The position numbers were made by a program, and so were the translations under genes. The notes below the pieces were generated by a model, which was not told the origin of the DNA, searched no databases, and worked only from the letters and a program-made list of their open reading frames with translations. Shown one piece after another: positions 2,478 through 6,676 of a DNA stretch of 9,862 nucleotides (positions within the stretch are counted from its first letter, which is position 1; every line of letters starts with the position of its first letter). The DNA is from Alphaproteobacteria bacterium (GTDB taxonomy: Bacteria; Pseudomonadota; Alphaproteobacteria; UBA8366). The stretch covers positions 1 to 9,862 of the forward strand of contig JABJCS010000305.1 of assembly GCA_018665505.1 (NCBI GenBank), in the 5' to 3' direction.

Positions 2478-3749
2478 TCACGAGGCTCCGTTAAGCCGAC
2501 GGATGACACGCTCCGCGGTCTCGACACCTGAGTTGTGGGCACCATGCACGGTGCCATACGCGTTGACCGCGTGAGCTTCGCCCGCGAAATAGAGGCGCTC
2601 GCCGACAGGCTCCGCCAGCGTGAACCGATCGTCCGCATAACCCAAACGCGCTGTCGAGTAACTGCCGCGAATATGCGGGTCTTCGCACCATCCGGTCGCT
2701 TTCGTGGCGGTGATTGCATTTCGGATATCGGTGCCGAACGCATCGACCAGGCGGTCGACCGCAAACGCGGTCATCTCGTCTTCCCCGATCTTGGAGATCG
2801 ATCTGGCAAACTGGCCCGCCATATAGGCGACGGCGATATTCTCATCGAACGGGCGTATCTGGAACCGTACCGCCTCGTTCGTCGCGTGAACGTAGGCAAC
2901 ATGCGCATCGTCCAACCCGAAGACATCGCGGTCGAATGCAATCGCGACTTTCTCCGCCTCACCGAGCGGTATGTTTGTGAAGGCCTCGACGAGCGGACCG
3001 GGGAGGCGCGGCGCAAACCGTATCGCGTCCGCCGCCAGGACATTGTTCGAGACCGTGACAATGACAGCTTTCGCGCGCAGCGTGCCGCCCGAAGTCTCAA
3101 CCACTACATCCGTGCCCGACCAATCGATCCCCCGCACGGAGGTTGAGAGAGAAAGAGGAATACCTTCACCGTATCGCGCCAATAAAGCGCCGTAACCGCA
3201 ACGCACTCGGCGGTTTCCCGTATCGTCCAGATAGTGATAATCGTCGAAGGCGGAGCTCCGCTCCGGCTCCATGCCGGAGAGTGCCGCATACCAAGACTCG
3301 AACATTGGGCGAAATTGGAAGTGATCGGGCACCGCATCCGAGACCGCTACATCTTCCGCGGCGACGCCCAATCTTTGGATGCGGTCGAAAACGAGGTCAC
3401 AATAGGCTTCGTAATCGCGAACGTATCCCGCATCCGCCCATCCCTTCTCGGTCCATATCCGCTTACCTTCGGCAACTGGCTCCAGCGTAATTTCTTGGGC
3501 GGTGGCAAACTCCGCGAAAAAGTTGCGCCCTTGATCGTGCAACCAATGCGCCCCTTGGTCCCACGCGATGCCTACGCTCTCGTCATCCGTATAGGCGCGG
3601 CCACCGATCCGGTCCTTTGCTTCCAGCACAACTACCACGAGACCGACATCGCACAGAGTGCGCGCAGCGGAGAGTCCCGCCGCCCCCGCGCCGACAATCA
3701 CGACATCCGGCTCCCCCGACACGTCCGTTCCTTCCCGCAAATGTGACAT
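2478..3749 (-). CDS. FAD-dependent amine oxidase (flavin monoamine/polyamine oxidase family)
   Basis: With the ATG at 3749 the protein has 423 residues. The N-terminus carries the Rossmann FAD motif [11 protein letters not shown] (16-26), followed by [11 protein letters not shown] (42-52), which binds the FAD ribose and phosphate, and DQGAHWLH (64-71), matching the GASWIHG block of polyamine oxidases. The C-terminus has LYFAGEAHA (386-394) and [11 protein letters not shown] (398-408), the second FAD-contacting block. Such enzymes oxidise amines to imines with release of hydrogen peroxide; the substrate cannot be read from the sequence. No cysteine lies in the C-terminal block, so FAD should be non-covalently bound. 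An in-frame TTG at 3812 would add 21 residues, but the Rossmann fold begins shortly after the ATG and a minus-strand TATATT lies between the two, so I prefer the ATG. No clear Shine-Dalgarno is visible. There is no signal peptide, so it should be cytoplasmic. It is the first gene of the leftward operon and diverges from msrA. Confidence 0.88.
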
Positions 3750-3835
3750 GGCCAAACGCGGCAAAACCTTGCCGATGGGCTCACCTATCCCCAATATACA
3801 AGCAGACAGCAAACGCAGGCACGGGAATATCGATC
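3750..3835. promoter_or_regulatory. Divergent promoter region between the amine oxidase and msrA
   Basis: This 86-bp gap must hold the start signals for two divergent transcripts. On the minus strand TATATT (plus-strand 3793-3798) matches five of six -10 positions and would give a 5' leader of roughly 35-40 bases for the amine oxidase; its -35 is poor. On the plus strand TTGCCG (3769-3774) and TATACA (3795-3800) are a weak pair with a long 20-base spacer. Because both -10 candidates overlap, the two promoters may compete. No operator palindrome was found. Confidence 0.35.
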
Positions 3836-4495
3836 ATGTTTTTCACATCGCCCAAAAAATTGGAATTACCAACCGCCGAGACGGCCCTGCCGGGACGTAG
3901 CGCCGAGATGCCGGTGCCGGCGAGCCATTTCGTAAACAAGAACCCGCTGAAAGGCCCGTTCCCGCAAGGTACCGAGAAAGTCATTTTCGGCCTCGGGTGC
4001 TTCTGGGGAGCCGAACGCGTCTTCTGGCAAACGGAAGGTGTCTTCTCGACATCCGTCGGCTACGCCGCCGGCATCACGCCGAATCCGACCTATGAAGAAG
4101 TCTGTTCAGGTCGCACCGGCCATAACGAGGTTGTCCTGGTGGTCTATCACCCGATGAAAGTGTCGTTTCAAACTCTGCTCGGAAAATTCTGGGAAGGCCA
4201 CAATCCGACCCAGGGGATGCGCCAAGGCAACGATATGGGCACGCAGTACCGGTCGGGCATTTACGTCTATTCGGACGCGCAAAAAGCCGCTGCCGAAGCA
4301 TCCCGCGCCGCCTATCAAGCGGAACTCGCCAAGGCCGGGCATCCGGATATCACGACGGAAATCCTCGACGCGCCGGAGTACTACTACGCTGAAGATTATC
4401 ACCAGCAGTATTTGGCGAAGAACCCGTCCGGCTATTGCGGCCTCGGCGGCACCGGCGTGACGTGCCCCGTGGGCATTGGTGTCGCAGCAGAGTAG
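3836..4495 (+). CDS. msrA: Peptide-methionine (S)-S-oxide reductase MsrA
   Basis: A complete protein of 219 residues, close to the 212 of Escherichia coli MsrA. The enzyme reduces methionine-S-sulfoxide in oxidised proteins and is recycled by thioredoxin. The catalytic motif GCFWG holds the nucleophile Cys55. Further blocks are [43 protein letters not shown] and AEDYHQQYL. The resolving cysteines are Cys201 and Cys210 in [13 protein letters not shown], the three-cysteine mechanism of the enterobacterial type. The N-terminal extension of about 45 residues ahead of [11 protein letters not shown] is as in E. coli and has no signal peptide. The ATG at 3836 is chosen because homology begins there; a weak GGGA lies about nine bases upstream. 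The longer open frame upstream overlaps the divergent gene and is not credible. The gene converges with the CULT-domain gene, with only 7 bp between the stop codons. No msrB is in the window. Confidence 0.96.
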
Positions 4496-4502
4496 CGCCG
4501 CT

Positions 4503-4868
4503 CTATCCAGGCTTTCTCATCGTCAGTTTCGGCTTCACCAGACCGAAGAAGACACCGGTACCCTCGAAGCGCCAACCGAGGTGCGTGGCACACCCGCCAC
4601 AGAACGCGATCCGCCAGGCATGGCCATTGAACCAAGAGAATTCAGTTGTGGCCTCCCCCGGCGCGTCGGCCCCCGGCGCTTCCTTGAAGCAAAGAACCCG
4701 GAACAAAATTCCGGCCGGATTAAAGAGGGTGTGTTCGTGCGCGCCGTCGATTGTCATGCGCCAATCTGTCCGCGTGACGAAGTGCCCGCAGGCAGCGCAA
4801 TAAATTTCGCTCGCCTCTTCTTCCCTGACGTCGTCTTCGATGAGCGTGTCTTCGGAGTCTTTAAGCAT
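4503..4868 (-). CDS. Single-domain CULT protein (cereblon thalidomide-binding-domain homologue)
   Basis: A protein of 121 residues that is a single CULT domain (beta-tent fold), the fold of the ligand-binding domain of eukaryotic cereblon and of Magnetospirillum gryphiswaldense MsCI4. Zinc ligands are visible as CAAC (Cys24, Cys27) and CGGC (Cys90, Cys93). The family block EHTLFNPAG (45-53, with Asn50) is present. The aromatic cage that binds glutarimide and uracil-type ligands is complete: Trp79 in EFSWF, Trp85, Trp99 in HLGWRFEG, and Phe101. From memory, MsCI4 has Tyr at that last position and human cereblon has Phe402. Length and cysteine positions agree with the start at 4868. There is no signal peptide or membrane segment, and no Lon-like or DDB1-binding part. 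The bacterial function is unknown; in eukaryotes the pocket reads C-terminal cyclic imides on damaged proteins. No Shine-Dalgarno precedes the ATG. It is convergent with msrA. Confidence 0.9.
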   Translation of the reverse strand: MLKDSEDTLIEDDVREEEASEIYCAACGHFVTRTDWRMTIDGAHEHTLFNPAGILFRVLCFKEAPGADAPGEATTEFSWFNGHAWRIAFCGGCATHLGWRFEGTGVFFGLVKPKLTMRKPG

Positions 4869-4873
4869 GCAGC

Positions 4874-4879
4874 AGTATA
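4874..4879 (-). promoter_or_regulatory. Candidate -10 box of the CULT gene
   Basis: The minus strand reads TATACT, five of six matches to the sigma-70 -10 consensus, ending five bases before the ATG. If used, transcription would start at or within a base of the start codon, giving a leaderless mRNA, which fits the absence of a Shine-Dalgarno sequence. No good -35 is seen at 16-18 bases; that region falls at the edge of the palindrome at 4897. Confidence 0.35.
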
Positions 4880-4896
4880 ACGCAACGGAGAGTCAT

Positions 4897-4957
4897 ACTT
4901 CGACAGGATCAGAATGAGGTGTTTGCGTGCAAGACCTCACCCTGAGCTTGTCGAAGG
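4897..4957. repeat. REP-like extragenic palindrome (CTTCGACAAGCTCAGG family)
   Basis: Two 24-base arms, 4897-4920 and 4934-4957, are inverted copies matching at about 18 of 24 positions around a 13-base loop. The right arm, read on the minus strand, begins CCTTCGACAAGCTCAGGG, a sequence I recognise as a dispersed extragenic repeat in many alphaproteobacteria. It lies directly after the stop codon of the leftward hydrolase operon and 28 bp upstream of the CULT gene. As RNA it would fold into a long stem, and it may protect or end the hydrolase mRNA. The mismatches are concentrated in the left arm, as if one half has decayed. Confidence 0.7.
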
Positions 4958-4967
4958 GCGAGCGAAC

Positions 4968-5816
4968 CTAGCCGAAGTTCCGCTCGAGGAAATCTACCAC
5001 ACCGCCGGTAAACGCGTCGTTGCGGTCTCCGGCAACCATGTGGCCGGCTTCGGCAACGTCGACGAATTCGGCGTGCGGGACCAGTCGTTTGAAATCCTGA
5101 ACGTTCTCCAGACTTACCACGTCGCTGCTCCCGCCACGCACCAATAGAGTTGGAATCTTGATCCGGGACGCAGCCTCACTGATTTCCTTCGATGCTACTT
5201 CGTCATGCGGGTGGCGGCGGTCGAGGAATTTCGGGTCCCAATGCCAAAACCAACGGCCGTTCTCGCCGATCCGCAGGTTCTTCTTCAGTCCACTGACGTC
5301 CTTCGGGCGGGAGCGATGCTCGCGATATTCAGCGACCGCGTCCGCGGCATCTTCCACGGTCTCGAACCCGTCCGGATTTCTGTTCATGAATGCAAGGATC
5401 CGCTCGACCCCCTTGGTCTCGATCTTCGGCGTGATATCCACCAACACCAAACCACGGCAGAGGTCTGGCGCACCGGTGCCGACGACGAATGTTGCAGTTC
5501 GGCCGCCAAGCGACGCGCCGACGAGGACGGCCTTACGGCCGAGCTTCGCCAAGACGACATTGATATCGGCGACGAAGTCGTGCGCTTCGTAATCGCCCGC
5601 CGCCGACCAACCGCTATCACCGTGCCCCCGCAGATCGATGCTGAGGGTGCGCCACCCTTTCTCCGCCAAAAGCCGGGCCGCACCGCCCCAGGAATGTCGG
5701 GTTTGGCCACCGCCATGCATAAACAGGATTGGGTCCGCCGCCGGATCGCCCCAAGCGTCGGCAATCAAAGTGACGCCGCCCGACGCCTCGAATTTGATTG
5801 TCTCCGCTTCCATCAC
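4968..5816 (-). CDS. Alpha/beta hydrolase, second copy of a tandem pair
   Basis: A protein of 282 residues with the alpha/beta-hydrolase fold. The oxyanion-hole motif is FMHGGGQTRHSW (32-43). The nucleophile elbow is GASLGG with Ser102, and the likely acid and base are Asp232 (GGSSDVVS) and His259 (AGHMVAGD). RGHGDSGW (63-70) is the usual strand-4 motif. The cap segment holds KDVSGLKKNLR and WHWDPKFLDR, both nearly unchanged in the neighbouring paralogue. Reaction and substrate are unknown; the family covers esterases, C-C bond hydrolases and lactonases. I chose the GTG at 5816 because MMEAETIKF then aligns end to end with MTEAKTIEF of the paralogue. An ATG directly follows at 5813 and is equally possible. 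Either start overlaps the TGA of the upstream gene, so translation is probably coupled. There is no signal peptide. It is the last gene of the leftward operon. Confidence 0.9.
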   Translation of the reverse strand: MMEAETIKFEASGGVTLIADAWGDPAADPILFMHGGGQTRHSWGGAARLLAEKGWRTLSIDLRGHGDSGWSAAGDYEAHDFVADINVVLAKLGRKAVLVGASLGGRTATFVVGTGAPDLCRGLVLVDITPKIETKGVERILAFMNRNPDGFETVEDAADAVAEYREHRSRPKDVSGLKKNLRIGENGRWFWHWDPKFLDRRHPHDEVASKEISEAASRIKIPTLLVRGGSSDVVSLENVQDFKRLVPHAEFVDVAEAGHMVAGDRNDAFTGGVVDFLERNFG

Positions 5817-6676
5817 TCCGCCGCATGCTCCGCAAAGGTCTGGCCGAGAAAATCGACCACCGCGTCGGTGAAAATGTCGTTCTTGTCGCCCGCCACCATA
5901 TGCCCGGCATCGGCCACATCGATGAATTGTGCGGTCGGCAGAAGCGTGAGGAAATCCTGCACCCCTTCCGGGCTGACCACATCGCTGCTACCGCCCCGGA
6001 TCAGCAATGTCGGCACCTTGATGTTGGGTGTGGCGATACGAACCCGGTCAATATGCATCGGATCGTTGCGGTCCTTGCGGTCAAGATATTTCGGGTCCCA
6101 ATGCCAATACCAGCGCCCATCATCCTTCAGCCGCAAATTCTTCTTCAGCCCGCTGACGTCTTTTGGCCGGGACCGGTGATGGCGATACGCCGAGACCGCA
6201 TCCGCCGCCTCTTCCAGATTTGCAAACCCATCGAGATTAGCGCGCATGAACTGCTGAATGCGCGCAACTCCCGCGGCCTCGGTCTTGGGTGCGATATCAA
6301 CCAAGATCAACGCCGTGGTCAGGTCTTGCGATCCTTCGCCGAGCGCCATCAGCGCGGTGCGCCCGCCAAGCGATGCGCCACAAACCACCGCCTTGCGCCC
6401 GATTTGCTTCTGCACCGCGTGAAAGTCAGCAGTGAAGTCGTCCAACTCATAGCTGGCGGAAGGCGACCAGCCGCTGTCGCCGTGGCCGCGATGATCCATG
6501 CTGATCGTGTACCAGCCCCGCTTGGCAAGCGCCGCCGCGGCACCTCCCCAAGCATGCCGGGTTTGGCCGCCGCCATGCATGAACAATATCGGATCGTTGG
6601 ACGGATCGCCGTAGATATCAGCAGCGATCGGGAATCCTTCAGCGGATTCAAACTCAATAGTCTTCGCTTCGGTCAT
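5813..6676 (-). CDS. Alpha/beta hydrolase, first copy of a tandem pair
   Basis: A protein of 287 residues, paralogous to the next gene downstream: by eye about 170 of 281 aligned positions are identical, without gaps except at the C-terminus. The catalytic layout is the same: FMHGGGQTRHAW oxyanion hole, RGHGDSGW, nucleophile serine in GASLGG, acid in GGSSDVVS and histidine in AGHMVAGD. The cap motifs KDVSGLKKNLR and WHWDPKYLDR are shared. Most differences fall in the first strands, around the helix after the nucleophile, and between LDRK and the acid (residues about 200-220), where substrate choice may differ. A C-terminal tail of about six residues, AEHAAE, is absent from the other copy. The ATG at 6676 has only a weak GAGA upstream. 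The gene lies 78 bp after the amidohydrolase, with a terminator-like hairpin between them. Substrate unknown. Confidence 0.9.
   Translation of the reverse strand: MTEAKTIEFESAEGFPIAADIYGDPSNDPILFMHGGGQTRHAWGGAAAALAKRGWYTISMDHRGHGDSGWSPSASYELDDFTADFHAVQKQIGRKAVVCGASLGGRTALMALGEGSQDLTTALILVDIAPKTEAAGVARIQQFMRANLDGFANLEEAADAVSAYRHHRSRPKDVSGLKKNLRLKDDGRWYWHWDPKYLDRKDRNDPMHIDRVRIATPNIKVPTLLIRGGSSDVVSPEGVQDFLTLLPTAQFIDVADAGHMVAGDKNDIFTDAVVDFLGQTFAEHAAE

What the first reader, a model, noticed from the sequence alone, without database searches (positions are those of the whole stretch)
4503..4868. Bacterial cereblon-like CULT protein with a human-type aromatic cage
The 121-residue protein keeps both CxxC zinc pairs (24/27 and 90/93) and the ligand cage Trp79, Trp85, Trp99. 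The fourth cage residue is Phe101. From memory, the studied Magnetospirillum MsCI4 has Tyr101 and human cereblon Phe402, so this homologue may mimic the human pocket more closely. The native ligand and role of free-standing bacterial CULT proteins are not settled.
Basis: partly seen in the sequence, partly recalled or inferred. Interest (0 to 1): 0.75.

Follow-up and report, generated by a model that had tools for sequence, protein, structure and literature searches.

The report
Ordinary bacterial cereblon-like CULT protein
The gene encodes a small bacterial protein of the same family as the drug-binding part of human cereblon, the target of thalidomide; it is real, but the 'human-like' residue that made it look special is the commoner form among the bacterial relatives looked at.

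Summary
On the minus strand, 4503-4868 encodes a 121-residue single-domain CULT (cereblon-like) protein with both CxxC pairs and the cage Trp79/Trp85/Trp99/Phe101. By sequence it matches MsCI4 (E about 1e-30) and animal cereblon chains (E 2e-11 to 9e-10); its predicted model superposes on both. Phe101 is the commoner state: 104 of 193 aligned rows have Phe, 84 Tyr. The two states swap about 30 times on a poorly resolved tree. A Phe-cage bacterial CULT was already solved as the MsCI4 Y101F mutant, 4v32, described as having a chemically identical cage; [quoted passage not shown] Overall the protein is less human-like than MsCI4: 31 of 96 against 36 of 96 identities. It is a new member of a known kind. 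My guess at its job is to read a cyclic-imide or uracil-like group, possibly on damaged proteins; this is inferred. A side lead is fresher: in 6 of 28 sampled genome loci, not in the window, a rhodanese gene follows CULT directly.

The parts
4503..4868 (-). CULT (cereblon-like) gene, 121 aa, single domain, ATG start
4788..4799 (-). first CxxC zinc pair, Cys24 and Cys27
   Evidence: Cys in 189 and 186 of 193 rows
4590..4601 (-). second CxxC zinc pair, Cys90 and Cys93
   Evidence: Cys in 188 and 189 of 193 rows
4632..4634 (-). cage Trp79 (human Trp380)
4614..4616 (-). cage Trp85 (human Trp386)
4572..4574 (-). cage Trp99 (human Trp400)
4566..4568 (-). cage base Phe101 (codon TTC; Tyr101 in MsCI4, Phe402 in human, number by counting from Trp400)
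3617..4495 (+). neighbour: peptide methionine sulfoxide reductase MsrA, convergent with the CULT gene, 7 bp between the two stops (the ORF as listed is longer than the enzyme domain)
   Evidence: same arrangement in L001
4968..5816 (-). neighbour upstream of CULT on the same strand, 99 bp away: alpha/beta hydrolase
   Evidence: another gene stands there in L001

Best explanation
It is a single-domain CULT protein of a bacterium, probably an alphaproteobacterium near Rhodospirillaceae. The two CxxC pairs hold one structural zinc at the apex of the beta-tent fold. Trp79, Trp85, Trp99 and Phe101 form the aromatic cage, which receives a ring with an imide-type edge (glutarimide, uracil or similar) and fixes it by two backbone hydrogen bonds at residues 77 and 79. 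With Phe instead of Tyr at 101 a third hydrogen bond is missing, so affinity should be somewhat lower and the binding mode the same, as in the MsCI4 Y101F mutant. In the cell it most likely acts as a stand-alone reader of such a group, plausibly C-terminal cyclic imides on damaged proteins. Shown here: gene, family, fold by prediction, residues. Shown by others for MsCI4: cage, hydrogen bonds, uridine and thalidomide binding, effect of Y101F. Inferred: zinc and ligand class in this protein, the cellular role, and the organism's placement. The confidence given is for family, fold and cage; for the damaged-protein role it is about 0.4.
Against: No ligand has been measured for this protein. Bacteria lack the ubiquitin ligase that makes cereblon a degradation receptor (established knowledge). 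Among the window proteins scanned against Pfam there is no ATP-dependent protease and no protein-isoaspartate methyltransferase, so the damaged-protein role has no support from its neighbours beyond MsrA; and MsrA next to CULT was seen only in the closest relative, L001, of 28 loci.
Confidence: 0.9

Rival explanations
1. The protein is a sensor or carrier of a free small molecule (uridine, uracil or another lactam or imide metabolite) rather than a reader of damaged protein ends.
For: MsCI4 binds uridine and deoxyuridine in the way of thalidomide, and uridine with comparable affinity; thymidine and cytidine do not bind (PMC4449219 passages; 4v31 with deoxyuridine).
Against: [quoted passage not shown] No pyrimidine gene stands out in the window: the two alpha/beta hydrolases match the RutD model (pyrimidine utilisation) only far below its cut-off (26.1 and 24.6 of 238.5 bits).
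Confidence: 0.35
2. The Phe101 form is a functional subclass with a human-like ligand range, distinct from the Tyr101 form.
For: Tyr101 adds a hydrogen bond and affinity; the label is clustered on the tree more than in any of 500 shuffles.
Against: Phe and Tyr mix within clades; about 30 changes on the tree, 4 to 5 forced by starred branches alone. The published Y101F mutant keeps the binding mode.
Confidence: 0.07
3. It belongs to another zinc-ribbon or beta-tent family (Yippee/Mis18, MsrB) and the cage is coincidental.
For: Pfam's best hit is Yippee-Mis18, below its cut-off (17.2 of 26.6 bits); MsrA lies next door, and MsrB shares the fold (PMC4287342, part 1 of 6 read).
Against: The best sequence and fold matches are cereblon CULT chains (all 46 rows; the 50 rows shown in each); the three tryptophans align exactly.
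Confidence: 0.01

Closest known systems
MsCI4 (cereblon isoform 4, Magnetospirillum gryphiswaldense; 4v2y and the Y101F mutant 4v32)
   Same: Single-domain CULT, same zinc pairs, same three tryptophans at the same residue numbers, 48 of 97 core residues identical; the Y101F mutant has the same four cage residues.
   Different: Tyr101 in the wild type, Phe101 here; three residues fewer in the loop after residue 105 (alignment).
Thalidomide-binding (CULT) domain of human cereblon
   Different: No LON domain, no DDB1-binding part; 31 of 96 core residues identical; human His378, His353 and His357 are Phe77, Ala52 and Phe56; human Val388 is Ile87 (353, 357 and 388 by counting).
'Cereblon family protein' / 'CULT domain-containing' entries of bacteria in public databases
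   Same: Same length and domain; 102 relatives by single-sequence search and 2332 by profile (the best 120 listed), a few of them already named so by NCBI, nr or UniRef.
   Different: Nothing of note; the eight nearest full-length ones (P0003-P0010, 76-88% identical) carry Phe101.

Membership tests
CULT domain family (bacterial group) | Significant sequence similarity to known CULT domains | tested here: met
   E 7.5e-31 to MsCI4 Y101F, 2e-11 to 9e-10 to animal cereblon chains
CULT domain family (bacterial group) | Two CxxC motifs for zinc | tested here: met
   Cys24/27 and Cys90/93; zinc itself not measured
CULT domain family (bacterial group) | Three cage tryptophans | tested here: met
   Trp79, Trp85, Trp99 aligned with MsCI4 and human
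CULT domain family (bacterial group) | Beta-tent fold | tested here: met
CULT domain family (bacterial group) | Protein consists of the CULT domain alone | tested here: met
   121 aa, domain from about residue 19 to 118; residues 1-15 have pLDDT under 50
CULT domain family (bacterial group) | Binds thalidomide or uridine | not testable with these tools
   needs purified protein
Full cereblon (CRL4 substrate receptor) | LON domain and DDB1-binding segment before the CULT domain | tested here: not met
   121 aa only, no LON match in Pfam
Human-type pocket as a distinct bacterial class | Phe at the cage base is rare in bacteria and marks a clade | tested here: not met
   104 Phe and 84 Tyr of 193 rows; about 30 changes on the tree
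Yippee/Mis18 | Passes Pfam PF03226 cut-off | tested here: not met
   17.2 bits against 26.6; 2 of the 102 relatives do carry a precomputed PF03226 label

The most novel reading that the evidence does not exclude
Bacterial CULT proteins work with a dedicated rhodanese in some lineages (direct CULT-rhodanese gene pairs) and sit beside stress or oxidative-damage genes in others (MsrA here and in L001, BatD-type operons elsewhere), so the ancestral role of the cereblon fold may lie in handling chemically damaged proteins. Phe/Tyr swaps at the cage base would then tune affinity for the damaged end.
Probability: 0.1. Interest if true: 0.7.

Novelty: new member of a known kind. Interest (0 to 1): 0.2.

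Why it matters
As a single protein it matters little: it is one more Phe-cage bacterial CULT domain. It could serve as a natural Phe101 homologue for ligand studies, where the Y101F mutant of MsCI4 or other humanised variants have been used. The wider point is that the role of stand-alone bacterial CULT proteins is, as far as I could see, still open, and conserved gene pairs (CULT with rhodanese) give a testable way in.

Tried and rejected
Whole genome of the window: none held. Mobile elements: no relative in 72,556 plasmid records or 50,697 phage records by tblastn, none confirmed in viral contigs, where only one peptide pattern was used. NCBIfam: no family for the protein. Function from neighbours: the block MsrA, amine oxidase, MmgE/PrpD, aconitase-family protein is shared with L001; in the DNA held for the other 27 loci the MsrA, MmgE/PrpD and aconitase clusters do not recur. 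The amine oxidase fell into no cluster because another frame was picked for L001; Pfam names it in both. BatD lies directly upstream of CULT in 4 of 28 loci (L031, L033, L034, L040; Pfam), but these four are one branch of the tree (SH-aLRT 91, not starred), and the CULT ORFs there were taken from the most upstream start, so the overlap of 88 to 208 bases is not to be trusted. Promoter and terminator scans round the gene: nothing above chance. A link between rhodanese and the Phe or Tyr state: none (the six loci have 2 Phe, 4 Tyr). Limits: genome searches scored at most 11 candidates per genome, so their tallies are lower bounds; the 193 rows lean to the query's neighbourhood (only the best 120 of 2332 were listed). 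Of the 193 rows, 6 with many gaps were dropped before the tree (P0052, P0078, P0084, P0094, P0098, P0103), and database rows 85% or more alike to a kept row were dropped too, leaving 166. The Ser and Cys at column 101 come from database sequences whose ends do not match (P0056, P0103); L001_g equals P0010 over the tree's columns.

Full report
What is there. The stretch 4503-4868 encodes, on the minus strand, a 121-residue protein that starts with ATG. It carries Cys24/Cys27, Cys90/Cys93, Trp79, Trp85, Trp99 and Phe101. The finding's coordinates and residues are right; it did not give the strand. The gene is real: 102 database proteins, from 38% to 88% identical, and a 77%-identical copy in L001, a contig titled 'MAG: Rhodospirillaceae bacterium isolate SP8 141447'. 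Against L001, 92 of 121 residues agree without a gap, codon-position differences are 17/11/61 and dN/dS is about 0.07, with dS near saturation.

The special claim. MsCI4 does have Tyr and human cereblon Phe at that place. But among 193 aligned rows (163 proteins: the window's own and 162 from the database; 28 genome loci; MsCI4; human) position 101 is Phe in 104, Tyr in 84, Ser, Trp and Cys in one each, and a gap in 2. In the 28 genome loci it is 19 Phe and 9 Tyr. On a tree of 166 rows, built without that column, the two states need 30 changes; starred branches alone force 4 to 5. The tree is poorly resolved (86 of 162 inner branches open), so 30 is rough, but the mixing is clear; against that, the label is still clustered (0 of 500 shuffles as low). 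The window's own clade is 12 Phe and 1 Ser of 13 rows, and the Ser row is a database sequence whose C-terminal part does not match (P0056).

The Phe form is also not new to structural biology. 4v32 is the Y101F mutant of MsCI4 with thalidomide. PMC8900816 (sections 12 and 15 and passages seen; [quoted passage not shown] Beyond that residue the window protein is less like human cereblon (31 of 96) than MsCI4 is (36 of 96); human His378 is Phe77 in both, and human His353 and His357 align with Ala52 and Phe56 (numbers 353 and 357 by counting along the human domain).

How it probably works. From MsCI4: the cage takes a glutarimide ring and holds it by backbone hydrogen bonds at residues 77 and 79; uridine and thalidomide bind, thymidine and cytidine do not (passages). 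For eukaryotic cereblon, C-terminal cyclic imides are now reported as natural degrons (passages and reference titles). I infer that the window protein reads the same kind of group. Whether it reads protein ends or a free metabolite I cannot tell; bacteria lack the ligase that makes cereblon a degradation receptor.

Surroundings. Downstream and convergent lies MsrA, then an amine oxidase, an MmgE/PrpD protein and an aconitase-family protein; the same block, in the same order and orientation, follows CULT in L001. Upstream, the window has two similar alpha/beta hydrolases and an amidohydrolase, then a chorismate-binding enzyme on the other strand; L001 has another gene just before CULT. No relative was found in plasmid or phage records, none confirmed in viral contigs. 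CULT genes were found in 21 of 398 genomes of the phylum draw, 7 of 43 of the order and 4 of 385 of the class draw around L001's genome, one per genome; the draws overlap, and the first and third are lower bounds. The 20 phylum hits other than L001's genome lie in one unnamed order, where 20 of 48 genomes have it.

A side lead. In 6 of the 28 genome loci (L032, L037, L038, L041, L042, L052; all in that unnamed order, 6 of its 20) a rhodanese of 139-141 residues, the other five 73-82% identical to L032's, begins directly after the CULT stop on the same strand: overlapping it by a few bases in L037, L038 and L052, 12 bases on in L032, about 30 in L041 and L042. Pfam's rhodanese model passes its cut-off in all six. 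The eight genomes checked have 4 to 12 rhodanese matches each, so chance adjacency in six is unlikely, though I ran no formal test. On the CULT tree these six fall in three places, with the caveat on resolution. In 4 of the other 22 loci the DNA held downstream of CULT is short (375 to 2207 bases), so a partner further off would be missed there. No paper in the held library names both cereblon and rhodanese. The window itself has no such rhodanese.

Verdict. A confirmed but ordinary member of a known family; its highlighted residue is the commoner state among the relatives examined.

Noticed in passing
L032:3005-3430, L038:3649-4074, L037:7360-7785, L041:7351-7770, L042:7361-7780, L052:4235-4654: A conserved rhodanese gene directly downstream of CULT, same strand, in 6 of 28 genome loci, overlapping the CULT stop in three. 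A candidate functional partner of CULT in one unnamed order.
   Followed up: partly
L031:7471-9423, L033:5190-6920, L034:5205-6920, L040:4986-6830: BatD-domain genes directly upstream of CULT in four related loci (Pfam PF13584), with a von Willebrand/TPR gene before it (Pfam run on L031 only; the others by BLAST cluster). The name 'Bat aerotolerance' is recalled.
   Followed up: partly
window 4869-4967: The gap upstream of CULT holds an imperfect hairpin with the motif CCTTCGACAAGCTCAGG (one copy in the window, 0.01 expected); it folds better than most shuffles (z -2.88, 4 of 200 as good). It resembles REP-like repeats common in proteobacteria (recalled).
   Followed up: partly
window 4968-6676 (minus strand): Two neighbouring alpha/beta hydrolases that look like a tandem duplication (shared DNA repeats 860 bases apart).
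   Followed up: no
L001:5163-5996: In L001 the gene just before CULT, ending 4 bases before its ATG, looks like a QueE-type radical SAM protein (by eye; Pfam gives only a borderline 4Fe-4S domain hit).
   Followed up: no
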